64,000 bases of DNA from Periconia sp. R9002 (taxonomy: Eukaryota; Ascomycota; Dothideomycetes; Pleosporales; Periconiaceae), in assembly GCA_023627715.1 (NCBI GenBank), contig JAMAHW010000044.1:1-64000 (forward strand), written 5' to 3'. The notes below the pieces were generated by a model. It saw nothing but the letters and a program-made list of their open reading frames with translations. It had not been told where the DNA came from and did no database searches. The position numbers were made by a program, and so were the translations under genes. This document shows, piece by piece, positions 1-58,311 of the stretch (the first letter of the stretch is position 1; the number at the start of each line of letters is the position of its first letter).

Positions 1-37
1 AGCCCCTGTCGTTCAGAGTGCACGAGCCGTATTCAAA

Positions 38-57
38 GGGATTATACTCATAATCCC
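38..57. repeat. Short perfect inverted repeat at left edge
   Basis: An 8-bp arm (gggattat) is followed by a 4-bp loop and its perfect reverse complement. It lies in the first bases, where composition is still near normal, just before the AT-rich block begins. It could be the end of the degraded element or chance. Confidence 0.4.
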
Positions 58-3000
58 ATTTACGTCTGATTTGATAGAAATATAGACACTTCTAGTTTAG
101 TCTTACCTAGTCTACTAGGATCTACTAAAATATAGGCTATTATAGAAAATAATAGCCTTATACCCTTAAAACCCTTAATTATCTACTTCTTATACTAAAA
201 GGCACCCCTATAGTTATCTAGAATATAGGTAGTACTAATATACTTATTATAAACTTCTACAAAAGTTAGAAGTATATTTATCTTATTCTTATCTAAGTCC
301 TTAAAAGGCTTATAGAGCTCTTTAAGATTCTTTAAATATATTATAACTAGTAAATATATATTAAGAGTTAGAGCGTTAGGTTTTTTAATAAACTAGTCTA
401 AACTATCCTAGTCTATAGTCTCTATAATATAACTCTTATAAAGCTAATTAACTTTCTTTATAAAATTTTTAAAAGACTTAGATCCTAATATACGCTTTTC
501 TTTCTTATTAGTATATGTAATAAAACTATTAAGACGTATATAAGCTCTCTAAACTTCTAAAGTAACGTTCTAGAATAGGAACCTTTAAGTAGACTACTTT
601 AGTTTATTTAAGTCCTTCCTAGTAATAACTAAATCTACTACTATCTTCTTAAGAGCTGCTAACTAAGTAAGAGATAATACTAAACTATCCCTATAACGCT
701 TAAGCCCTTCTAAGTAATTAAAGTAATTAATAACTATACTTAGAAGCTTTAATAATTTAATAACCCTAGGTTAATTATTAAAAGCTTTAAGAAAATTAGA
801 GAAGCCTTTAGTATTAGTAGTAGTCTAGAGCTAGTATAATAAATTTCTAATAAAAGTATTAACTATCTTAAACTTCTAAGAAAACTAACTTAGTTTATTC
901 TTAACTACTTCTAAAAACGTAAACCTCTACTCTATCTTAGCTATTTTTACCTAGTTAGTAGTATATCCCTCTTATAAAGTTTAAATAAGCTCTGCTTATT
1001 AATTAAGCTTCTAAACTAATTTATTATTAGAGGTGTTACTTAGATTAGAAGCTACTAGGGTAGACTAAGGTAAACTATCTACTTTCTATACTAACTAAGT
1101 TAGCTTTTCTTTATAAACTTTAACCTTATTTTTAAAGTAAGTAAGTACTTTTACGTTAGCTTAGGTTAAAGTAAGTATCTAGAGGTTTTAGATATCTTCT
1201 TTTAGTATCTTTAAGCAACTATTGTATATAGAAATCTTAGTAGTATATTAACCTAGCATCTTCTTTATTATATCCTTAGACCTAAGGCTACCTTAATTAT
1301 TATTAAGTTACCTTTTAAGCTTAGAAATTTAAGTATCTATAAATAAAATATAGCTAACTAACTCTAAGTTACTTTTTATATTTAGAGAACTATCTTAAGC
1401 TAAGTTAGTAAAGTTTAGTCTAGGCTAAAACGCCCTAGTACTTACTAAATTATATAAGATTTTATATTTCTTTCTCTTACTAGGGGTTATAGAACTAGCT
1501 ACCTTCTAAGCCTTATACTTAGATATACGTTATAAGGAGAAAAAAACTTCCTATTAAGTACTGCTATAGAATTAAAGATAACTAAAACTCTAAGTACTAC
1601 TAAAATCTTAGCTAGATATAGTTAGTAAAGTTTAATCTAAACTATCTTAGGATATTACTTATAACTAGTACTTTATATAGATTTCCCTTAGCTTACTAGT
1701 AGCTAGCGTAGCGCTACCTATTTTAGGATAGATAACTATTATTTCTCTATCTTTATCTTTAGTAGAAAGGAATTTATCTTTATTTTTAGAGAACGTTATA
1801 AAGTAGTGTAGAAGTAGCTTAGTAGAAAGCTTAAAAAGAATATCTCTAAAGATAACTTTTATATAACGTATTACTATAGGAACGTTTTTAGCTTTAGGCT
1901 AATATAAAAGGTTAGAATAAAAATAGTCTAGACTAGATTAGAGGAGACTTATTAATCTACACTTACCCTAGAAGGCTATATAGCTAAAGTAAAAGTATCT
2001 ATTAGCGTACTAACTACTAAAAATTATAGTAAAAGATTATAGAATATAAATATAAGGAATATAACTAGAGATCTTTTTCTAGGTCTTAGTAGCTAACTTC
2101 TTACTCTAATTAGTAACCTAACCTATATAAAGACTATATATAAAGAGAATAAGAACTATATAATTAGTAAAAACTCCCTTCTAAGCTTTTATAAAGCGGG
2201 TATCTATAATTTTAATCTTAAAGATAAAGCTAGCTTTAGTGTTTATACTTAGAGAGACTAATATCTAAGTCTTAGGAGCTATTTTAACTAAGAGAGGCCT
2301 AGTTTAAGCTAAAAAATAAAAAAAGTATAGTTATAAGCGTTAGAAGTAGGCGTATAAGGCGTAAAGTATAAAAAAGCGAAAGTATTAGAGAGAGTAATTA
2401 AGAGTAGTAATAGTAAAGTAGTTAGAGTAAGGTTAATAATTAAAAAGAAGTATAAGAAGGTAGAAAGTAGAGTCTTAATTATTACTCTAGGTAGTAGTAT
2501 TAACTTTCTCTTACTTTACGTAGTTACGTACGCTACGTAATTTAACTTTACCTCCTCTTACCTTACTACTACTTACTAAATACTCTCCCCTTTTTAATTT
2601 TTTTACTATATTAGAAATCTTTACTATAAATATACTCTATAATACCTACCTAAAGTACCCCTTATAAGTCTAGGATAGACTCGCCTAAAAGAGGAGGCAT
2701 TATTATAGGTTAGCTATATCTAGCCTAAACTAGCTATACCTAGACTAGAGCAATATAGTATACTCTAGACTAAAAAACTCTAGTAGAAAAACTCTAAATA
2801 GTAATATTTAAGAAGTATAAGATAGGTTAGCTATAAATAAGATAGGCTAGATAAAAATAGAGTAGACGGGACGTAACTAGAGTAGACTAGACGTAACTAA
2901 AGCAGCCTAAGATAGATAAAAGTAGTAAATACCTATATAGAGAAAGGTAGGTATTTATAGAATCTTTAGCTACTAGTACTTTTAGAATTAAGCTAGTTTA

Positions 3001-6000
3001 GCCTATTATCTACTATACCTATAGCCTATTTTCACACTAGCTTAGCTATCTTAGCCTACCTATCTACTTTTTTATATATAATACTATACCTTTTATACTA
3101 CTCTTATATATACTACTACTTAAATTAAGAGTACGTCTACTCTTAACTTTAGCGTATTAGTTACTATAAACACCTACTACGACCCGCTTATTAGCTACTC
3201 TACTAACTTATTTTTTTCCCTCTAGCTTTTTACGTTATAGTAGTAGTAGACGTACTATAGTACTTCTACTAACTATACTATCTTAGCTATACTACTATAG
3301 TATATAATTACTTAGCTATATAAGTACTACTTTATTAGCTTACCTACTAACGCCTTTACTACCTCCTCCTCCTTTTCTATATTATAGTTATAGACTTAGT
3401 AGTAAATATTAGGGTAGGTAGTACTACTATAGAACTACTAGCACTACTCCTTACTTAATAAACCTATTAACTATATAAACTAAGCCTTTTTACTAGGCTA
3501 TAGTGTTACTATTAAGTACACTACCTACGTTTTAACTACTATTAGCTTTTATAGTACTAGTATTTACTCTCTTTAGCCTTATAGTAAATCTAGAACCGCG
3601 TAGTACTTATTTACTATAATTTAGTTTAGCTAACTTATCACCCGCTAGTAGTTAAGGAACTATCTAAATACTTTACTTACTACTAACTTAGGCATAACTA
3701 GCACTACTTATACCTACTTACTTAGCTAATAGCTACTCTACTTTATATACGTTATACCTAGCTAGTAGTATTACTCTTCTATATTTACTTGTAATAATAC
3801 TAGTAGGATAATAATAACTATAACGCTAGTAGATATAAATGCTAGTAGTATAATTAGTATACTCTTCTCTACTCCTATCTCTATAATAGCTATAATAGGG
3901 CTTTCCTACTATATAATAGCTTATAACGCTAGCTTCTAAACGCTATAGAACGTAGCCTACTTTTTAACTATCTTTTTTAACTAGTGCTTTACGTCTACGT
4001 ACTATATTATCCTTTACTACTAGTACTTTTTCTTAATTACCTTCTTACGCGCTACTTAAGTCTATAACCTCTTAAATTAGAGCTTAATTATATACGCTAT
4101 ATATAGGAATACGTACTATTCCTAGCTAACTTTCTAGAACGCTACTTACTTAGACTTAGTACTAAATACGGCTTTACTAATATATTACTTATATATTAAC
4201 CTACTAACGTATAAGCTATACTTAGTTTATAGATTAGCTACCTTATCCTCTTTATAGTTACTACTATCTTTTTTCTTATCTACCTATAGGTAGGCTTATA
4301 CTACTATTTTATTACTAATATACCTATAGTAGATAGCCTTACTTCTATATCTCTACGCTATAATATTTAGCTTAATATTTATATACTTTAGTAATATCTT
4401 TTAGAGGGCGTATTTAACGTAGTTAGCATTCTATAGCTTTATAGCTAGCTCTTTCCTTTTTTCTTTTTCCTCTTTCTTTTCCTTCTCTAACCTACTTTCT
4501 CTATTATTTTTATTTATAGCTAACCTTTTCTACTATAGCGCTTTCTACTTCTTTTTAGGCTTAAGCTACTAAATATATATACTACTCTCTATAGCTCTGC
4601 TGCGTATAATACCCTTTATTTTTTCCTAAAATAGTAGCGTAAACTATAGATAATATACTAGTAACTTACCTACTTTATATAGTAGATAATAGTAAATTAC
4701 TTTAGACTACTCTATTAACTTAATATTTTTATAGTATTAAGTTACTATTCTTATTAACCTATTCTTAATAAATACTTTATAGCTTTCCCTATTTACGCTA
4801 TTCTTATACTAAATAGTTAGCAGCTCTAACACCTACGCTAGGAACCTATATATTATATATACTAGTATAACTAACTTTTAGTAGAATACTTATATAGTTT
4901 ACTAGTACTACTTTACGTAGTCTACGCTTTATACTATAGGCTAGCTAGCTACTATAGCTTTTTAGGTAGCTGCTATATTAATAAATACCTTTTGTAATAA
5001 CCTTTTCTTAATAATCTACTACTCTAGCTATAATAGGGGCCTAGGTACGTTTATAGCTTCTTAGTTTTAGACGTCTTCTATAAAGCTCTACCCTATCTTC
5101 TACTTAGCTAGGTTATTAACTAACTAATTCTAGTAGATAGCTAGTAGTGTAGTTATACTAGGTACTAGCTTACTTTTATTATCTACTTATAGTAGTATTA
5201 GCTTCTTTATTAGGTGCTGCTATATACTAGCTACTACGCTATAGACTATTAACTATAACTATACTATACTAAAATAGATATACCTATATAATAATATGTT
5301 ATCTACTTAGTTAATTACGCCCTCTACGCTAGTGTTAAACTAGATTTTTATCCTATACGCCTTTAATTATAGAATAGTATCTATAGAGGTTAGCTAGCTA
5401 TAGTAGCTTATTAACGTTATAAAGTAGTTAGCTATATTTTATACTAAGTTAAAATAGCTATACACCTTCTTTTCTGCTTTACTGTAATCTAGCCTCTCTA
5501 CTTCTAGCTAGGCTATCTCTACTCTATATATCTACGCTACTCTATATAATACTAGTATATATAATACGTTAATAATAGTAGTTTACTTTAGCGTATATAG
5601 TAGTAAGCTAACCTACTTACTATTTACGTTAATACTTATTACTACTATAGCGCTAATTAATACGCTATAGTACTTATAATTACCTAGTAAGTAGTTTAAT
5701 AAATATAATATAAACGTTAATATAACTATTTCTAGCTTCTACTCTTACTCTTCGCCTAGCTTATTATTACTATCTATCTTTTTAAACTAGTCCTCCTTAC
5801 TCTTATTACTATCCTACCCTATAATAGCTTCTATTTTCTATAGTAATATAGCCTATTTTATAGTAAGTTAATATAATAGCCTTTTCCCTTATACCTCTTT
5901 TCTTTTTCTTTTTCCTATACTAATTTTGGGCAACGCGTAGGTCTACTATATATACTATATAATTTCTAACTACTACCCGCTATACTTAATTATTATCCTT

Positions 6001-8313: not shown

Positions 8314-10392
8314 CTAGCAGATTGTGAAACTCTCTTCTTCCACTTCCCCAGCTTTCAAAGTTGCGATCGCTTCGCCCCTCATTATCCCATGAATATATGC
8401 CTCTTGAACCAGCTTGTATTGTCGACTCTCTTCATCCCGAGGGTCCTGTTGTCTGAAAACGAAAGGACACTTCGCCCCGAAAAGAATGCAGATGACGTCA
8501 CCAGGCTTCGTTGGCCAAAGCCCAAGTCCGAAGTATCCCTTCTTAGTGAAAAAGAAGCTCCTACCGTCGCCCATCAATTTAAAATCGACATAGTACCTTT
8601 CAGCATCCCCATCCCCGGGACCTGGTATTATAGCACTATTTACCACGCCAGGGAATTCTAGAACTGTTTCTAAGCCTGGAGACTTCAAATCATAGACGGC
8701 CTCCAGCCAAAGCCGGAAGTAGGCTCGAAAGTCACGCCGATGTCTGTCCATGTCGTCCTCTGCGCAATCATACGTCGTTATACCTGCGATGAGGGTAAGT
8801 GAAAATGCATCGAGCCAGGCATCGCCATAGGCAGATGCCGAGCTCTCCCCTAACTTTCGTGCTTGCTGCCAGATTGAACACAGCGCAAAAGTGGAATCCA
8901 CATCGGTTTTTGTTGACCCCTCTCTCCCCAAAGCAAGCATCGACCGCAACTTCTCTGGGCTTGAGGCTAAATCATCAGCCGTGAAAGGAAAAGCATCCTC
9001 CACTACGTCAAAGTAAACACCTTGTGCATGCAGCTGATGTAAGTCGTCAACAGAAGGCTTCTTGCCTGAGGGTGCCGAAAGTATCCCTCCATCAGCACGA
9101 TAAAAAAAGCCATAGTAGACGCCAAGAGTACAGGACGTGTACTCCTCCGGCCAGCACCAAGGAACCCAAGAAGGATAGTCTGCCTTCAGCTGGTCCTCAT
9201 TATGCTCCACTGGGGAGAGGATGGAAAGGCCGTGTTTCTTTAGAAGTTGGACAGCAAGCTCGAACCATACCTGCATATGATCCTTCTCATAATCGGGCAT
9301 CATGATGAGTCCCGTACCATCCTCCAACCTCGCAAGAGGGTGTCCCAGAAGAGAGTAGACATGGTCGCGGGGATTGCTGCAATTCATGCCCCGCGCCTGG
9401 TTAACCAAATCCACAATGTTGTTCTCCGGATACGTCGCCGTGTCCCGCCAATTCTCCAACCAGTTCTCCCAGTCGACATGAATCGAGACGAACGACACGC
9501 CAGCCCTAGTATCCAGATTTGGCGCCCTCCTCATCGTCCACGCGGCCACTTTCATCAGATCCCGATAGGCAAACTCGACGGGTCCGTACAGAACTCTCGG
9601 ATCCTTAGCCAAACCAACCTCCTGCAGAACCCATGTCCGCGTAAACCACGGGAGTTTCTGAAATTTGGCCAGCGACTTCCACCTAGCGTCGTCGTAGAGC
9701 GAGTCTGTCGGGTCCAGCACCGGCATGTCGGCGATGGACTTGTACTTTGAAATCATCTGCGTCATGTCATACACCAGGCTGGCAACGTCCTCGGCGGCGC
9801 CGTCCGTGTCGCGGCCCATGCAGACGAGGACCTTGTGTGCGTGGCGGTATACCTCGCTCATGAACGCAACGTGGTGGCTTTTTTCTCTATCGTTGCTTTG
9901 GTTGATACATATCTGTAAAGTGTAGCTCCGTTATTGGCTTATGATCTCTACGTATTTATTTTCGGAACTCGGCGATTTTCTTAGGGTGTGGGAGTCACTT
10001 ACAGCGTCGGCCCACACAATCCTCGTTCGATACGTGAGGCGGATTCTTTTCAACGCTGCGAGCAAATTGAGCGTGACCTTGAACTCTCTCCCGTTGCAGA
10101 GAATGGGCACTGTATTAGCGGCGTCGCCCCAGACGTAGGAGAGGGCATCGTATTCAGGGGCATGGTGAAGCTCTGTGATGAGCAGCCGGATGGATACCGG
10201 GTCGTTCCATGCTCCTGGGCTCAGTTCGATCAACCTTATAACCCGGCCCTGTAGTAACGGGAAGTATAGGGGTTGGTCGAGGCCATGGGGCTGGAATTTG
10301 CGCTTACCCGGGCCAGGTTGGGTTATGTCGCCTTGTTCGGGGAAATCTAAGACTTTGGGGTTTTGAGCTTGCAAGTCCTGGGAGTCTTCCAT
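8314..10392 (-). CDS. HET-domain (heterokaryon incompatibility) protein
   Basis: Two exons: 10392-10003 and 9912-8314, with a 90-bp intron (GTAAGT donor, CAG acceptor). Splicing restores the HET signature across the junction, and the lengths sum to 662 codons plus stop. HET motif 1 (YDALSYVWGD) is at residues 81-90 and the second motif (WADAICINQ) at about 127-135. The C-terminus carries the pattern common to this family, with the words GDVICILFG, YIHGIMRGE and a hydrophobic strand. HET proteins trigger programmed cell death when incompatible fungal individuals fuse; members exist in tens of copies per genome and most have no proven role. The gene starts at the ATG at 10392. It is the first intact gene beside the RIP block, a typical position for fast-evolving HET genes. 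No NACHT or repeat domain is attached, so which signal it senses cannot be inferred. Confidence 0.9.
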
Positions 10393-48586: not shown

Positions 48587-50624
48587 TTAGCGGATAGTTA
48601 CCCACGAACCTTCACTCGCGAGCACTTCAGGTCTAAGAGATGCTACGCCAACCCTTTCAAAAATCCCACTTTCCAGAGCATTACGGACTTCATGGATAAC
48701 CAATACGTGATGCTTCAAATTGACCTTTCCATTTTCCAACTTGTCCCTTCCAATAACCACGCACCTGAGGTCTTCAACGGCAAACTCTTCGTTGTCATCA
48801 AACGCAATAATGACTAACATATCATACGTGGTCATGTTGATCTTCCGTGCGAGTCCAAGAAATGAAGCTGACTCAATCCCGCCAGGAACTGAGAAAGGGT
48901 TTTTGAAATCATCGATGGCCCAGTCAATTTCCTTGAACCTCAACTCCGCCGTGGCGTCCATGTATTGGATGCCCCCCTCCTTAGAAAGAGACGACCATGA
49001 AGGAACGCGACGACCAGCTGGCTGGACAATCCGCTGTAAGCGTGTAAACTCCCGGCGTTTCCAGAGTAGCCCTCGGGCAAAATATTCTTCGAAAAGACCG
49101 TAAGCAGCTCTCGTTCTGAAGGCCCAGGCAAGTCTTCCTTGTAAGCCTAGAATTGCGACTGAACGATCTGTGGGCTTGGTGAATGCCAGGCCTGAGTATC
49201 TTTCGTAGAGATCTTGGATAAGTAGTTGCCTACCGTCTCGGTAATGACCGACAGCAGCGGTAGGAAAGTTTGCGTCACCCAGGAGGGCAACCTTGGAGCT
49301 ATGTCACCTTTAGCTGGGCGGAAATTACACGAGAATAGGCATACATATGCCGTCGCGTGTTTGGCTGGAAGAAGGCATACTTACTTCGTAAGGCGAGTGA
49401 GTGTCTCACAGTGGATGCCGGCACCGCACTCCCAATAGACCTGAGTTGAGGTAAAGAAAATTGTCCGCCGAGACAATGCTCTCTCCTGCAACACCCAGCC
49501 ACGGCTGTTCAGTGCGCTAAGTTCGACATCAGTGTAGAAGTCGTCAATGTCAGCACAAACATAAGCCGCTCCAGCCGTTTTTTCAGACAGCTTTATCACA
49601 GTACGCGGCGTGCGTTCGCGCAGGAAGCCATCCAGCGATGATTTTGCCGAACTCGCGCCAATCGTGCAGTATGCTGTGCTGAAAACAAGTTCCATCTTAG
49701 CTGACTCGCGCTGCCAGTCATCGTCATCGTCTTGAATGATGCACAATGAGTCAATCCAAATATAGCCGATCCCCAGACCCCGAGTCGCTGTTATAGCATC
49801 GCGGAAAGTACGTGGGAGAGCATCGAAATTGATGCAAGTCTTGAGATCTTTGATGTTGCCTTTGTAAGTGCAGAATTTCTCTTTCTCCTGTAGCGGTCCC
49901 CAACAGTGACTTAGTGCGACGTAACGACAAGACTGAATATCCGCTGTTTCTACAAGACGAATTCGCTGACCTATGTCAATGAGTCGTGTTGGCTTACTCT
50001 GTACATCTTTCTCGTCACGGTGACACATGTCATGGTCCGAGTCGCACACTTGGATCCATTCCTTGAGGAGAGCGTAGAATTCGCGAGATGCTTGGCTGAA
50101 CAAGGACGGCAGGCCAAACTGTGCGTCAGTTGGGATCTCGAGCCTTGGATCTGTACATTCATCAGCTAACTTCATCCCATTTGCTAGACTCAGAATCCTA
50201 CCTGGCTCGCAATAATATGACAACAGATTGGGACCACTTTTAAGCCCTACGTGAGCAGCATCTTGACGTAGCTCAACAGTGTGGGGTGGTTTGATACCTT
50301 TGCGATCCAATGCATCCAGCAGCAGTTTGCATAGGTTGCATGCTCGAGACCTTTCTCGAAGAAGAGCAACATCACAGAACCCATCGAATTTCCGATGTAA
50401 GTTATCTAGTGCGCAAGAGTCACATAGCCTTGTTGTACTGTCAGTAGATGAGGGTTTGGCTTGCTCCCACCCAATCTTGTCGAAGAAATCGGCAGCAAAA
50501 TCATTATCTGGAACCGAGATCCAATCGTCATTGAGCTTGCTTGATTGCTAGATGACTTAATTACCATCAATGCGCTTTTTGGCATAGAGGGTGTGCTTAC
50601 AAACTGCGGAACATTGGTTAGCAT
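48587..50624 (-). CDS. HET-domain protein, or C-terminal half of a kinase-HET fusion
   Basis: Stand-alone model: exons 50624-50601 (eight codons from the ATG at 50624), 50547-49385 and 49298-48587, with introns of 53 and 86 bp; 632 aa. The N-terminal region has the cysteine words LCDSCALDN and ACNLCKLLL, usual before a long-form HET domain. The HET core follows: YVALSHCWGP, then IWIDSLCIIQDDDDDW and STAYCTIGASSA, and SRGWVLQERALSRRTIFF, the last two being diagnostic. The C-terminal half continues with typical family sequence (YGLFEEYFARGLLW, VPSWSS, then a beta-rich end with RVGVASL). The alternative model joins the big exon starting at 50547 to the kinase frame upstream through very short exons, which would make the first small exon only TTT (50603-50601). 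Both models use the same two large exons, so the HET domain itself is certain. Confidence 0.85.
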
Positions 50625-50843
50625 GTCCACGCATTAGGAAAGTCTTTTACTCACTAACTAATGGCAAGTTACACACTGCGTTAGCGAGCTTGAACAAAAG
50701 GTGTAGATTAATTACTAACATTCTTCCCAAAGGAGAATGCTCAGTCAGTTAGGATTCTGGCCTAGATGCGAAGCGCTTACATACTGATGAAGTAGTTAGC
50801 CTTACAGACCAATTGATGCAAACATTGAGCGATACTAACTTAC
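50548..50843 (-). other. Chain of five mini-introns separated by four 3-nt exons
   Basis: Between the kinase frame and the HET exon, splice signals alternate in a regular way. The introns are 50843-50784 (60 bp), 50780-50723 (58), 50719-50676 (44), 50672-50604 (69) and 50600-50548 (53). The pieces left between them are three bases each: TAT (50783-50781), AAT (50722-50720), TGT (50675-50673) and TTT (50603-50601). The donors are GTAAGT, GTAAGC, GTTAGT, GTAACT and GTAAGC; four of the five introns contain a perfect CTAAC branch word; the acceptors are CAG, AAG, CAG, CAG and TAG. All junctions are phase 0, so the four codons Tyr-Asn-Cys-Phe would link kinase to HET without a frameshift. The stretch could also be one 296-bp intron, also phase 0, or an intergenic spacer if the two genes are separate. 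Confidence 0.55.
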
Positions 50844-52661
50844 TTCTTGATGGTCAGAGCCCTTTGATGTTTGACTGCTCAACGTGTTAGTATTGGTGTT
50901 CCAAGTTGGTGCCTGGACGATCATCTTCAGCGGTCCTTCTGGTGATTCAGGCACTGATTCCTCTGTTGGGGTAAGGGCTGAAGTCCGTTCGGTGCCCACC
51001 TTGCGAGTCGCTTGTGGATCCTGCGGGGCGAGTCTTCCCTTGATTTGAGGGATGTTCTTGATTTGCTTGATTTGAGGGATGTTTTTGGTTTGACGCACAG
51101 TCCTCCCAAGCTCAGATGCAGAAGGGTAATTCAATCTCTGCATTTTGAGATACAGTTCTTCGGCGTGACCCTTTTCATGGATTTCTTGTAGGGTCTTGTG
51201 AACTTTGCTAGCGATCTCGCGGAAGCGCGGTATGCTCTTGTATTCAACGGATACAGGAACTATGAGCAATCTTTTTCGAACAAGCCGGAGCATATCTTTG
51301 TAGGCTGTACCAGTTGCTAGCTGTTCTTTCAACCATCTCATCACCGAAACCACGTATTCGTTCACTTTGAAAGGTCTACTGCCATCAGGCTGAAGGTCCC
51401 TTTGCCAAAAATAGTCGGTAGTTTCGTCCCTAAACGCCTTGAGACCGCTATTACCAGAGACAAGCCACACGAGAAGCTCGAGTAGGATACAACCAAAACT
51501 CCAAATATCGTATTGGCGGGATCGAGGTCGCTCTTGGCCACGCAACTCTTCCATCTCTGGGGGTTCGTATCGGCGAGTACCCGACGGAGTTTTTGTCCCC
51601 TTGTCTACTCGGACGTTTGTGTGCTGTCCTTTCTCGTGGAAGGTAGTGAGACCAAGATCCGCTATCTGAAGCGATCCTATATTGTGTTCATATCCTTTCT
51701 CGAATAAAAGGATGTTCTCCGGTTTAAGGTCCCCATGTCGTACATTTTCATTATGAAGTACCTCGAGAGCTGAGCAAATCCCAGCAAACTGACCAAGAAG
51801 CCATAGCACCATTTTTCTCTCGCGAGCTGAAGCTTCGTTTTTTGCCCAGAAATCGCCAAGATTGCCCCCGTCAGCCCACCGAAAAATGAAACAACGATCT
51901 GGCTTACGCTCATACGCGGCTATGGGCTTGATCAAATGTTCTGACTGTAGCTCTCGTGCCCGAGTCAAATTTTCAGTCTCCTTATTTACCAGTTGCTCCC
52001 ACTGCAATTGGGGCAACTGTCCACCTCTTTTCAACCTCTTGATTGCAATTTGGAACGCTGGTAGTTTCTTCCACTCTATAAATGGAAGTTCTTGGTGACC
52101 AACAATGTGGCTTGCATGGATCACCGCCCTCGATACTTCTCCAAAAAAGCCATTCCCCTCTGGTCCCGCTGCCTCTTCTAAGAACGGTAGTCGTTGCTGA
52201 GGAGCTAGTCGGAAGCGAAACTTTTCTTTTCCACCAAAAACAGGTGATGTTAAAGTCCATTGATTGTCGAAGTAGTTTTGCTTCTGTTTTCGAGTTAATC
52301 CTCGAAACCATTTATATTGCGGTGCATCTGTTGGTTGAAGCCAGGTTTCGCCATAACCTTGCTCATTGATAACGATGGGCAGGGAGTCGTCGACGAGGTT
52401 CTCCTCCATGCATCGCTCCAATTGTTGCTCAAAGTTTTTCATTTCCATTAGGAAAAGAATGAGGAATAGTCGCCGGGCTTTCTTCAGAACGAAATGTACA
52501 ACATCATCCACATTCTTAACTTCTCGGCGATCCAGAACAGACCTCACATTCGACTCAGTAACAAATTCGCCCAATCTGTGCTCGGGCATGAATTCTCCCA
52601 TGTCCCCTTGGAGAAATGAGTCTTCCACAGCGTCTCTCAAGTTTGTGATGGCTTCTTCCAT
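50835..52661 (-). CDS. Serine/threonine kinase-like protein, probably N-terminal half of a kinase-HET fusion
   Basis: A 608-codon uninterrupted frame. An N-terminal region of about 165 residues contains a helical part (VVHFVLKKARRLFLILFLME) shared with the kinase-like gene at 55.8 kb. The kinase domain follows: glycine loop GNGFFGEVSRAV at 169-180, lysine 208 (AIKRLK), catalytic loop HGDLKPEN at 309-316, DLG (in place of DFG) at 335-337, activation segment end GTRRYEPPE at 361-369 and YDIWSFGCILLELLVW at 384-399. All core catalytic residues are present, so activity is plausible. A short internal repeat (KNIPQIK twice) precedes a serine/threonine-rich tail. The frame ends GAA-GTA-AGT-TAG, where GTAAGT is a consensus splice donor only six bases before the stop. 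Splicing there would continue the protein into the HET domain downstream on the same strand (about 1,234 aa in total). Confidence 0.85.
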   Translation of the reverse strand: MEEAITNLRDAVEDSFLQGDMGEFMPEHRLGEFVTESNVRSVLDRREVKNVDDVVHFVLKKARRLFLILFLMEMKNFEQQLERCMEENLVDDSLPIVINEQGYGETWLQPTDAPQYKWFRGLTRKQKQNYFDNQWTLTSPVFGGKEKFRFRLAPQQRLPFLEEAAGPEGNGFFGEVSRAVIHASHIVGHQELPFIEWKKLPAFQIAIKRLKRGGQLPQLQWEQLVNKETENLTRARELQSEHLIKPIAAYERKPDRCFIFRWADGGNLGDFWAKNEASARERKMVLWLLGQFAGICSALEVLHNENVRHGDLKPENILLFEKGYEHNIGSLQIADLGLTTFHEKGQHTNVRVDKGTKTPSGTRRYEPPEMEELRGQERPRSRQYDIWSFGCILLELLVWLVSGNSGLKAFRDETTDYFWQRDLQPDGSRPFKVNEYVVSVMRWLKEQLATGTAYKDMLRLVRKRLLIVPVSVEYKSIPRFREIASKVHKTLQEIHEKGHAEELYLKMQRLNYPSASELGRTVRQTKNIPQIKQIKNIPQIKGRLAPQDPQATRKVGTERTSALTPTEESVPESPEGPLKMIVQAPTWNTNTNTLSSQTSKGSDHQEVS

Positions 52662-54525: not shown

Positions 54526-55845
54526 TGTAATCAGACTCGTTAAGGCTTTGAAGGGGTGATGGGGGGATGACGACCTTTTACGACAACTTTGACTGGCTTT
54601 GGTCCGTGCTAAATGAGTATCACCGGGCGCATATTCCGAGTGACCTCTCCTTATGGCTACCAATGAGCTGTGCGCGGCCTGGATGGATGCCTGAGCGGCC
54701 AGCTGACATCGGGAGTTAAAGGGTGGCGCCACGTTCAGGCACCGATATATTGGGGGCGCAGCGTCCACCTGCCAACCGAACCGTCACATCAGGCTCATAG
54801 GCGCTAATATCCTATTGCCCATTTCCGTGCTTGAACTCGGTGGCACGAGAAAACAGAGAATAAATGGCTCGCACAAAATACATCTGGAAAATGGCTCCAC
54901 TTTTTGCTTTCTCGTATGAATTGAATCAAACCCTTCGACTAACGGTCAGCTTGGGGCGATAATACCTGCGTACTGGGTTTCCGTGCCCCTCGCCTTACTT
55001 ACGGATACGGCGCAGCCTCGAGTGCATATGAAAGAAGGCAACCCCGCACACAAAATTATTGCCCTGGTGGCCTGTCAAGTCCGATGCCTCAGCCTGCAGT
55101 AAAACGGGATAGGACGGGCTAAGATCATCCGTACAGGTCAAGTCACCTCGGATAGCATCCCTATGACGCAAACTATAGCTCTGCCAACAAGAAGGTCCAA
55201 AACACAATTGTCAAAGCCTTGTAAGTCGTCAACACGACAGTTCGCGCTACACAACAGGGGTACAATCCGAGGTGAGACGGCGAAGCAGTTCTGTACACCA
55301 CGTGGGCCTCCTCCTCCAACTGCCACAGGCTTCCAAGACACCGCTCTCAGCCACTAATCTACTGTACGAGTCTTGTGGCTGGCAAACTGAGGATCCGAAA
55401 TGGAGGCAGTGCAGTCTCGAGAGGCCAGGGTTGCGCACGAGATGCAGCATACGCGCCCGCCCCCAACAAATTCTAGCCCCATAATTGCTTTTCCTACCGT
55501 GAGATAGGAAAACAGCCGCATTCACACACTTGGGGTGCTGTGCACGAGCGGCTGGAAATCGAAAAGGTTGATTGCTTTCCATTGGCTCTTTCTCCACTTG
55601 GTATGGACTGACGCACTTTAAGACGTTCTCAAGGCCCCACCAGTTCACCTTAGGGGCTATCTCTCGGTTATGCTGTTGCTACGATCCCTATCATCCATTT
55701 TCTCTTGTATTTTCATTTCCAGAGTCTCTGATCCCGGAAAACAGCACAGGAGTGCATGGCTGCCACCGTTGTTGCTGGCTTCGTTCATGCACCGTATGCC
55801 CAACCAGCCTCGTCGAAAAATAACGTCAGGTAATTCCTTTATCTG
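54526..55845. other. Upstream region of the second kinase-like gene
   Basis: No supported gene; several frames on both strands between 54,995 and 55,823 overlap and lack domains. It holds the promoter of the gene starting at 55846. Confidence 0.45.
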
Positions 55846-58311
55846 ATGGACATGAATCAGATCAAAGGGCCAGATAGCTTTTCGACTACGTCCGAAAGCT
55901 CACCGGGACCATTACGGTCGCGTGTCACACACCAAACCCTACATGTAACTCCTGGTCCTATCTCGACGCGATACAACTTCGACGAGAAAGGGTTTCTTGG
56001 CGGCCCCGAAATTCAACTAAATCAGAACAAAGGCTTGTTAAACCCTGTCAATGACGGTGACAATCGAAAGAGCCCCAGCAGTGATGCTTCTTCTGCTGTT
56101 CAAAAAGTCGAAGACTTTGGTTTCAGTGCAGCCGTCGCAAGTTTCGACTTTAATTCTATTAAACATGAGGCTCTCAATGTCCTCAGGGGTTACCAGAAGA
56201 CAGCATGCATCGAAACAAACTTGAGGGAAGAGTTTGAGAAGAGTTTGCAATTTAGCCAACCAATCACCAGTGAATACCTGCCGCTCGACAAGTTTAGAGC
56301 CCTTTTCAATCCAGGATCCATTGTATTGCTTTTGAAGGAGAGATACCCAGATTACTCGGAATCTGATTTGCTGAACAAGTTCCAGGACATCATCAGTCCA
56401 AATCGGGGGAATAGCCGGACCCGAATCCTCGGTATCCTTGTAGCTATGGAAAGCCTTGATCGTCTTGAAGAGTTTATCACAAGAGATATATGGGATCGCG
56501 ACTTACCCTTCAAAGACTCAAGGGAGTATACTGAAAAGTCTAGTATACTCAGCGGGTGGAAACGAAATGAGCGATTGGTGTTTTATGAAAACCAGAAGGT
56601 CTTTTTTGTCCCCTTTTTCGATATTCAGGAGAACAGGTTGTGCTCTTACGAGCTTGATCACGGAACAAGGCTTCCATGGGTTTCACTGGAGCCCAAATCG
56701 ATTGGAGGTACTGGGCAAGTCCATCAGCTGGAAATCCAACCCAGTCATCATAATTTTCGCAAACCTGGGGTATATCATTGACATTCCTACTAATGGCAAG
56801 TCGCTAACTTCATCAGTCTGATGCTAATCCAAGATTTGCACTCAAAGAGATTGCTGCCTCCGAGCAGCGGGCATATAGGAAAGAGCTTCACGCGCTGGAA
56901 AAGACTTGTGCACATGTGCAAAAAGAAAACCATCTAATCAAACTTTTGCTTACTTTTCAGCACGGCAATAACTTCTATTTGCTGTTTGAGTGGGCAGATG
57001 GGAATCTTCAACAGTTTTGGAAATCCAACCCCTCCATAGAACACTCGCTTTCGAATGAGATATGGGCGTCTCAACAGTGCCTTGGCCTAGCAAAAGCAGT
57101 CAGTCGCATTCACGGGCTCAGTTCGTGGCACAAGAGGAAAAGGAAGAGGTCACACTCTATCGTAGCCGAGAAAGAAGACGAATGTGTATGGGGAAGACAC
57201 GGAGACATCAAACCCGAAAACATATTGTGGTTCGAAGAATACGGGGATTTCCGAAGGCACCTGGTCATTTCTGACCTCGGGCTTGCGCGGTATCATACCG
57301 AATCCTCAAAATCACTGGTCCCCCGAACACTGCTTGACGGCATCACATGGGGTTACCGCGCGCCTGAGACAGACTTTGGGTCATCCATATCTCCAGGCTA
57401 TGACATATTCTCGCTAGGCTGTGTGTTCCTCGAGTTCTGTATATGGTATTTGCGCGGATTTGAAGAAGTGGGAATCTTTGTTCTTGAGCGGCACGACGAA
57501 GATAATCCCACATCTGATGATGTAATAAGAGATCAATTCTTTTGCATAACAGACAGTTCCAACACTGTTACGGATGCATGTTTGAAGAAATGTGTGGAAG
57601 AGGTATAATCGCCACTCATCATTCAATACTTTCATCTTACTGACGACAACGTAGCGATTGGCTCAAATGAGACACGGTACAAAGTTTACACAAGGAATGG
57701 CTAGTGTGATCGATCACATGCTCTGTTGCAATCCAGCAAAGAGACCAAAAATTGACCTTATACGCACGGATCTTCAGGAACTTGTTAAAACATTGACAAG
57801 ATCATCTACGCAGGAAATATCACAGGACTTGGCTTTTACATCCACCAATCCAAGTCTTTTGACACCGTTGGACAAGACCAACACATTGCACAGATACTCT
57901 TCACATTTGACTCTCGAAAGCCCAGAAGATTCCTCATCTACGGAGGCACGCGACGTCAATTGTGCCAAATCATCCCGATTTGATCATGACCACAATGCTA
58001 GCTACAGCGACTACGAGGACGCGACCAATGAAATCTCCGCCACAGTTCCGGGGCGAGTAACAAAAAGCGAAATGCTGCGGGCGGAAATCCAGGAAGTTGC
58101 ATTAACCCCGTCTTCATATTCCATTGCCTACCTACAGTCCTCACACCAATCTACTGTGCCACAGGTTCCCCAAAAACGATCTGTGGATGTCGGGGGTGAC
58201 TTAATTGAAAGGAACAACCGATCATCTACGACAATATTCAGGCATGCCAGGAACAGATCAAAGCAGTGGATGCGGCAGACTTGGAGTGACGTCAAGGATG
58301 TTTGGAGGTAA
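55846..58311 (+). CDS. Kinase-like protein with fungal N-terminal regulatory region
   Basis: Three exons: 55846-56769, 56817-57602 and 57655-58311, with introns of 47 and 52 bp, all phase 0; 788 aa. The first 280 residues are a fungal-specific region with a helical part (DLLNKFQDIISP) and the word DRLEEFITRDIWDRDLPF. The kinase domain has lysine 318 (FALKEI), FYLLFEWADGNLQQFW at 361-376, catalytic loop HGDIKPEN at 436-443, DLG at 461-463, GYRAPE and YDIFSLGCVFLEFCIWYL. The basic word HKRKRKRSH sits in an insert before the catalytic loop. The glycine loop is weak (GGTGQVHQLEI near 287-297). The C-terminal 150 residues are low-complexity and basic at the end. It is a relative of the kinase at 50.8-52.7 kb, which is transcribed away from it. 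Confidence 0.87.

What the first reader, a model, noticed from the sequence alone, without database searches (positions are those of the whole stretch)
48587..52661. Kinase-HET fusion gene joined through a run of single-codon exons
On the minus strand, a complete kinase frame ends six bases after a consensus donor (GTAAGT). Downstream, the HET frame opens at 50547 with a TAG acceptor. The 296 bp between can be cut into five introns and four 3-nt exons (TAT, AAT, TGT, TTT), all phase 0, with four of five introns carrying a CTAAC branch word. A single 296-bp intron would also be in frame. Either way the protein would couple a kinase to a HET death domain (about 1,230-1,234 aa), a receptor-like layout with few if any described examples that I can recall. 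A run of consecutive 3-nt exons would itself be exceptional. It could alternatively reflect recursive splicing.
Basis: partly seen in the sequence, partly recalled or inferred. Interest (0 to 1): 0.88.

Follow-up and report, generated by a model that had tools for sequence, protein, structure and literature searches.

The report
Runs of one-codon exons in fungus
A fungal gene that joins a protein kinase to a cell-death (HET) domain carries between them what looks like a run of introns with single-codon exons; four other genes of the same fungus show such runs, and in three of these the codons vary more than the introns around them, which suggests a hidden way of adding and varying protein residues one at a time.

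Summary
On the minus strand the kinase exon (52661-50844) and HET exon (50547-49385) are separated by 296 nt that tile into five introns and four 3-nt exons (TAT AAT TGT TTT), all phase 0; 0 of 5000 shuffles tile. The kinase-HET layout is common: 26 of 29 proteins matching the junction region have both domains. What is new is the array. In the same genome a second kinase-HET gene (C78) shows eight introns and seven one-codon exons, a HET gene (C161) three, and two loci with secreted-looking first exons (C142, C197) four or five, and nine. In C161, C142 and C197 the units are visible tandem repeats (intron plus codon), and codon positions 1-2 are the most variable part of the aligned units (0 of 64, 0 of 67, 0 of 75 intron windows as variable; 2 of 76 with a smaller C197 set). 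Best reading: local tandem growth of intron+codon units, each spliced, adding one diversifying residue. No RNA data were available; for the window gene one spliced-out fossil array remains possible.

The parts
50844..52661 (-). exon 1: protein kinase (PF00069 at residues 204-398), 606 codons, ends phase 0 at ...DHQE
   Evidence: PF00069 E 5.8e-26
50784..50843 (-). intron 1, 60 nt, GTAAGT...CTAAC...CAG
50781..50783 (-). single-codon exon TAT (Tyr)
50723..50780 (-). intron 2, 58 nt, GTAAGC...CTAAC...AAG
50720..50722 (-). single-codon exon AAT (Asn)
50676..50719 (-). intron 3, 44 nt, GTTAGT...CTAAC...CAG
50673..50675 (-). single-codon exon TGT (Cys); an alternative tiling uses TTA nearby
50604..50672 (-). 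intron 4, 69 nt, GTAACT...CTAAC...CAG
50601..50603 (-). single-codon exon TTT (Phe)
50548..50600 (-). intron 5, 53 nt, GTAAGC...TAG, no CTAAC word
49385..50547 (-). exon with the QSSKLNDDW start, Cys-containing N-part and HET domain (PF06985 at 49923-49483)
49299..49384 (-). intron 6, 86 nt, phase 2
   Evidence: join gives LTRLTNSKVALLGD, compare P0029 LTRLQNSKVAFLGD
48587..49298 (-). last exon of the HET protein, with stop codon

Best explanation
The window holds one intact gene for a kinase-HET protein whose domain border carries a codon array: five short phase-0 introns separated by four exons of one codon each, adding Tyr-Asn-Cys-Phe between ...DHQE and QSSKLNDDW. Since a 3-nt exon leaves no room for two splicing complexes at once (recalled), the introns are most likely removed one after another (inferred). 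Such arrays arise where an existing phase-0 intron plus three bases is duplicated in tandem, each copy adding one residue (tandem units are visible at C161, C142 and C197; inferred for the older, diverged arrays of C44 and C78). The codon then changes faster than the intron around it, most likely under diversifying selection on the residue (inferred). In the HET genes this varies the linker between the N-terminal part and the death domain. Kinase-HET proteins probably act as intracellular triggers of fungal cell death (inferred from the HET family).
For: Exact tiling, 0 of 5000 shuffles; the same place in paralogue C78 tiles into eight introns and seven one-codon exons, 0 of 5000; C161 three, 1 of 5000. 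Introns within the window (no pair above z 1.5) and within C78 (none above 2.7; 136 pairs in all) no longer resemble each other, yet the AG-3-GT hinges are still there with usable donors, which one long intron would not require. Acceptor-to-donor spacing of exactly 3 occurs 5, 7 and 3 times in C44, C78 and C161 (one of the five in C44 is outside the tiling used); other spacings from 0 to 18 occur at most 3 times (7 in C78, 17 in C161). Strict whole-genome pattern: 6 hits in 42.9 Mb, reversed control 0; five lie in C161, C142 and C197, one (C194) reads by eye as coding sequence. In the three repeat arrays codon positions 1-2 exceed the intron windows (0 of 64, 0 of 67, 0 of 75), position 3 does not. 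Transition:transversion is 24:6 and 35:3 in introns but 2:6 and 3:10 in codons for C161 and C142; chance of the excess at positions 1-2 0.0025 and 0.0012. The arrays of C44, C161, C142 and C197 match only their own loci, so growth is local. None of 29 codons is a stop, weak alone. Ten database fusions join an HxE-like end to an xSSxLN-like start with no residue between; one (P0126) has one extra.
Against: No transcript or proteome data. Intron 5 of the window has only TTGAT and intron 2 of C78 no branch-like word; with a branch word demanded neither array tiles. One C142 unit has lost its AG, and one C197 unit has a 166-nt intron. With only the first seven C197 units, 2 of 76 intron windows are as variable as the codon. 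C105 and C2 have no intron at this border and C150 has one one-codon exon plus one of 15 nt, so the array is not needed by the family. Database gene models join the exons directly, though predictors rarely-nt exons (recalled). The hypervariability test could not be made on the window array. The possible 3' exon of C142 and the first exons of C142 and C197 have no relatives in this genome, and the C142 3' exon none in the protein search, so those genes are less certain.
Confidence: 0.74

Rival explanations
1. One 296-nt intron: the array is a leftover of earlier intron duplications, the micro-exons are now always skipped and the protein is 1230 aa.
For: Also in frame; ten database fusion models join the same two exons with no residue between; two donors are off consensus and intron 5 lacks a good branch word.
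Against: Splice signals with exact 3-nt spacing persist in the window and C78 although the introns no longer resemble each other; hypervariable codons in three other arrays point to translated codons.
Confidence: 0.17
2. Regulated microexons: the codons are included or skipped in combinations, giving a set of linker variants from one gene (up to 16 in the window, 128 in C78).
For: Every exon is one codon in phase 0, so any combination keeps the frame. A microexon switch is reported in Trichoderma (PMC11121469, abstract and passages).
Against: No RNA data; nothing in the sequence shows regulation. Not exclusive with the best explanation.
Confidence: 0.2
3. Local intron copying: one intron was copied repeatedly into neighbouring codon borders of an already existing peptide, so the codons differ because they are old coding sequence.
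For: Explains different codons next to near-identical introns; the four arrays searched match only their own loci.
Against: Insertion has no reason to keep exactly 3-nt steps in phase 0, while duplication must add whole codons; ten database relatives show no extra residue at the border in their gene models.
Confidence: 0.12
4. Two separate genes, kinase and HET, with an intergenic stretch of chance splice words.
For: The kinase frame has its own stop at 50835.
Against: 26 of 29 junction-region matches are fusions; the border of paralogue C105 is one open frame; no shuffle tiles.
Confidence: 0.03
5. A nested intron (stwintron) or an introner burst.
For: Both are described in Ascomycota (starts of abstracts).
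Against: No intron interrupts a splice signal of another; three bases lie between them. DNA searches with the arrays of C44, C161, C142 and C197 found no copy elsewhere (the tool skips very common words; C78 was not searched).
Confidence: 0.03

Closest known systems
Micro-exon genes (MEG) of Schistosoma
   Same: Secreted proteins built from many short exons, 3-81 bp, with alternative splicing (PMC10526429, abstract and passages).
   Different: Introns there are long, up to 5 kbp; in the passages seen no run of only single-codon exons and no tandem intron+codon unit; different kingdom, homology not tested.
RPS24 consecutive microexons (human)
   Same: Three consecutive microexons, one of them 3 bp (PMC12686416, abstract passages).
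   Different: 3, 18 and 22 bp, not a run of single codons; no tandem units mentioned there.
Aphid bicycle effector genes
   Same: Many small internal exons of one phase in putative effectors (PMC9168663, passages).
   Different: About 17 exons on average, phase 2; single codons not mentioned in the passages seen; insects.
Cryptococcus CNN00420, intron gain by repeat expansion
   Same: Tandem units containing a whole intron, in a fungus, EST-supported splicing, copy number varying between strains (PMC2395259, passages).
   Different: Unit about 107 nt that includes ends of exons; no single-codon exon or hypervariable codon in the passages seen.
Single 3-bp exons in fungi
   Same: 3-bp exon 2 of Ganoderma gpd (PMC8379801, one passage); 3-bp exons reported in fungal mitochondrial genes (PMC12308204, one passage).
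   Different: Single exons, or organelle introns; no run of them described in those passages.
Stwintrons of Ascomycota
   Same: Several U2 introns removed in order at one place (PMC12403724, PMC9024468, starts of abstracts).
   Different: Nested, no coding bases between the introns.
Introner-like elements of fungi
   Same: Multiplied introns in one genome (PMC4457414, start of abstract).
   Different: Here the four arrays searched match only their own loci.
Kinase-HET proteins of Ascomycota (Bipolaris, Periconia, Alternaria, Colletotrichum and others)
   Same: Same two domains; 26 of 29 matches; ten with the same border words.
   Different: Border arrays cannot be seen in protein records; those ten models join directly.

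Membership tests
HET-domain protein (PF06985) | HET domain over curated cut-off | tested here: met
   105.9 bits, cut-off 22.5
Protein kinase (PF00069) | kinase domain over cut-off | tested here: met
   91.9 bits, cut-off 31.7
Protein kinase (PF00069) | catalytic activity | not testable with these tools
   HGDLKPEN and ADLG words are present by eye; activity unknown
Kinase-HET fusion proteins | both domains in one reading frame | tested here: met
   in frame after splicing, by sequence only; border open in one frame in paralogue C105
Micro-exon gene arrangement | consecutive very short symmetric exons | tested here: met
   by sequence only
Micro-exon gene arrangement | exons present in mRNA | not testable with these tools
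   no RNA data
Intron gain by tandem duplication | tandem units containing a whole intron | tested here: inconclusive
   met for C161, C142, C197; not visible in the window or C78
Stwintron | internal intron interrupts a splice signal of an external intron | tested here: not met
   3 bases lie between acceptor and next donor at each hinge of the tiling
Introner-like element | similar introns at many unrelated genes | tested here: not met
   arrays of C44, C161, C142, C197 match only their own loci; C78 not searched

The most novel reading that the evidence does not exclude
This fungus has a genome-wide class of codon arrays: repeat tracts of intron+codon units in which splicing removes all but one codon per repeat. 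Repeat gain or loss then changes a protein by single residues, while a hypervariable codon sits in an otherwise conserved unit, so that self-recognition and secreted proteins can be lengthened, shortened and re-lettered residue by residue (possibly also by alternative inclusion). It would be a repeat-based diversification system in which introns hide the repeat from the protein.
Probability: 0.4. Interest if true: 0.93.

Novelty: new variant of a known kind. Interest (0 to 1): 0.86.

Why it matters
Runs of four to nine consecutive one-codon exons would be an extreme of gene fragmentation, easily missed by gene prediction, and would give a direct test of how introns multiply and how recognition proteins diversify. 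It also makes testable how a spliceosome deals with several 3-nt exons in a row. My searches of an open-access library (listings, with passages of seven of those papers) showed single 3-bp exons, in fungi too, and short consecutive microexons in RPS24, but no run of one-codon exons in a nuclear gene of a fungus.

Tried and rejected
Other species: DNA of relatives could not be reached; viral contigs matched no pattern, and genome contigs gave 15 pattern matches that were no relatives; so the array is known from one genome. Rfam found nothing up to E 1 in 50400-51000. The C150 border was tested as a further array but does not tile with 3-nt exons alone. C194 from the pattern search reads as coding sequence (by eye). 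Relatives of the C142 and C197 first exons and of the C142 3' exon in this genome: only themselves; the C142 3' exon had no candidate in the protein database. C161: no kinase match on that contig among the 51 listed and none in L030; only listed frames in about 7 kb upstream, one of which has an IBR domain. Demanding a branch word in every intron: only C161 then tiles. Two-exon chains are no more common at length 3 than at other lengths, so pairs were ignored. Kinase-HET as a novelty was rejected.
Full report
What was checked. The window belongs to a 42.9-Mb genome in 267 contigs (C44:1-64000), a fungus by its genes and relatives. On the minus strand a 606-codon kinase exon (52661-50844, PF00069 91.9 bits) is followed by GTAAGT and, 296 nt later, by a HET exon (50547-49385, PF06985 105.9 bits) and, after an 86-nt phase-2 intron, the last exon (49298-48587).

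The fusion is common. Of 120 listed relatives of the kinase exon (180 matched), 25 also carry HET. Of 29 matches to the junction region, 26 carry both domains, from Bipolaris, Periconia, Alternaria, Lophiotrema, Colletotrichum, Fusarium, Diplodia and others. A motif count over all 143 proteins on file finds 11 with an HxE-like end beside an xSSxLN-like start: ten with no residue between, one (P0126) with one. Kinase frames of close relatives end HREVC (P0001), HREVCQIH (P0002), HHEVC (P0008) or HQEVRTR (P0003), as if read into a GT donor at the same place (inference). In Monosporascus P0054, 17 extra residues beginning V-S and ending Q at this place look like one retained intron of 51 nt (inference), so some relatives seem to have one intron and no array.

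The array is real as sequence. The 296 nt tile from the fixed donor to the fixed acceptor into five introns and four 3-nt exons; 0 of 5000 dinucleotide shuffles tile. Spacing 3 between acceptor and donor occurs 5 times, other spacings from 0 to 18 at most twice in this stretch. With exons of 1-30 nt allowed, 6 of 24 tilings are in frame without a stop and two of these are all-3-nt. If a branch word from my list is demanded in every intron, the window and C78 do not tile.

It recurs. The same border in kinase-HET paralogue C78 tiles into eight introns and seven one-codon exons (ATG GAT TAT GGA GCT GTG GAT; 0 of 5000 shuffles). C161, a HET gene on a contig without a match to this kinase, has three (GAA CGT ATT; 1 of 5000 shuffles). 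C150 has one (AAT) plus a 15-nt exon. C105 has no intron at the border: one open frame from the kinase end into the HET N-part, with five stops further on in the HET part. C2, with a different N-part, has none either. A strict whole-genome pattern gave six hits and a reversed control none; two more loci appeared, C142 and C197, and one hit (C194) looks like coding sequence. C142 (four one-codon exons, five counting a unit whose AG is lost) and C197 (nine, with one 166-nt intron among them) lie behind first exons that look like signal peptides (by eye, no predictor used), in phase 0. The pattern misses the window and C78 arrays, so five arrays are a lower bound.

How they grow. Tandem repeats of 68 nt (C161, 3.0 copies), 71 nt (C142, 4.8) and 73 nt (C197, 2.6) were called, each unit one intron plus one codon. 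DNA searches with the arrays of C44, C161, C142 and C197 found only their own loci (C78 not searched), so growth is local. In the window and C78 the units no longer resemble each other, yet the hinges of the tiling keep their spacing and usable signals; I take this as selection to splice each intron.

The codon is the variable part. Aligned were 3 units of C161, 4 of 5 of C142 (the partial first unit left out, the unit with the lost AG kept) and 8 of 9 of C197 (the long one left out). Intron pairs differ at 15, 9 and 35 percent of sites, codon positions 1 and 2 at 100, 83 and 75 percent; no two-column intron window reaches that (0 of 64, 0 of 67, 0 of 75). With the first seven C197 units, 2 of 76 do. 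Position 3 is ordinary (15 of 65, 12 of 68, 25 of 77 columns as variable). In C161 and C142 intron differences are mostly transitions (24:6, 35:3), codon differences mostly transversions (2:6, 3:10); the excess at positions 1-2 has chance 0.0025 and 0.0012 under uniform change. The search pattern fixed the bases beside the codon, so conservation there is partly chosen; the codon and the intron interior were left free. The numbers are small and the test cannot be made on the window array.

Mechanism. Shown by sequence: geometry, recurrence, tandem units, codon variability. Inferred: sequential splicing, translation of each codon, growth of the window array by the same duplication, diversifying selection, and a role of kinase-HET in cell death (HET is a cell-death effector domain in Podospora: passages of PMC4986451; see also PMC12881547, passages). 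Origin by local intron copying and fate as one skipped stretch are kept as rivals.

Novelty. [quoted passage not shown] Single 3-bp exons are known in fungi, in Ganoderma gpd and in mitochondria (PMC8379801, PMC12308204, one passage each). MEG genes, RPS24, bicycle genes and the Cryptococcus intron repeats are the nearest kinds; in what I saw none is a run of one-codon exons made of intron+codon repeats. This absence rests on searches of an open-access library only.

Noticed in passing
G000:C197:15517-16329 (L038 1168-1980, minus strand): Nine one-codon exons behind a first exon with a signal-peptide-like start and an LELR end, next to a frame with a TRI5 (trichodiene synthase family) domain on the other strand (144.4 bits).
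   Followed up: partly
G000:C142:19683-20395 (L033 1252-1964, minus strand): Tandem 71-nt intron+codon units behind a signal-peptide-like exon ending LEIRQ; a possible Cys-containing 3' exon has no relatives.
   Followed up: partly
G000:C2 (L031 2000-4954): The same HET N-part follows a repeat-like (TPR-looking, by eye) region in one frame, without intron at the border: the HET module has been joined to different N-terminal parts.
   Followed up: partly
window 55834-58308, plus strand: A second kinase gene (PF00069 in 56808-57605) close to the kinase-HET gene; its other frames were not searched for HET beyond the whole-genome HET list.
   Followed up: partly
window 8317-9930, minus strand: Another HET frame in the window (PF06985 59.9 bits, second half of the domain).
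   Followed up: no
window 1-6000: AT-rich stretch (27-29 percent GC) beside about 42-55 percent in most of the rest, perhaps a RIP-affected repeat region.
   Followed up: no
whole genome G000: At least 152 HET matches at E 0.001 in one genome.
   Followed up: no
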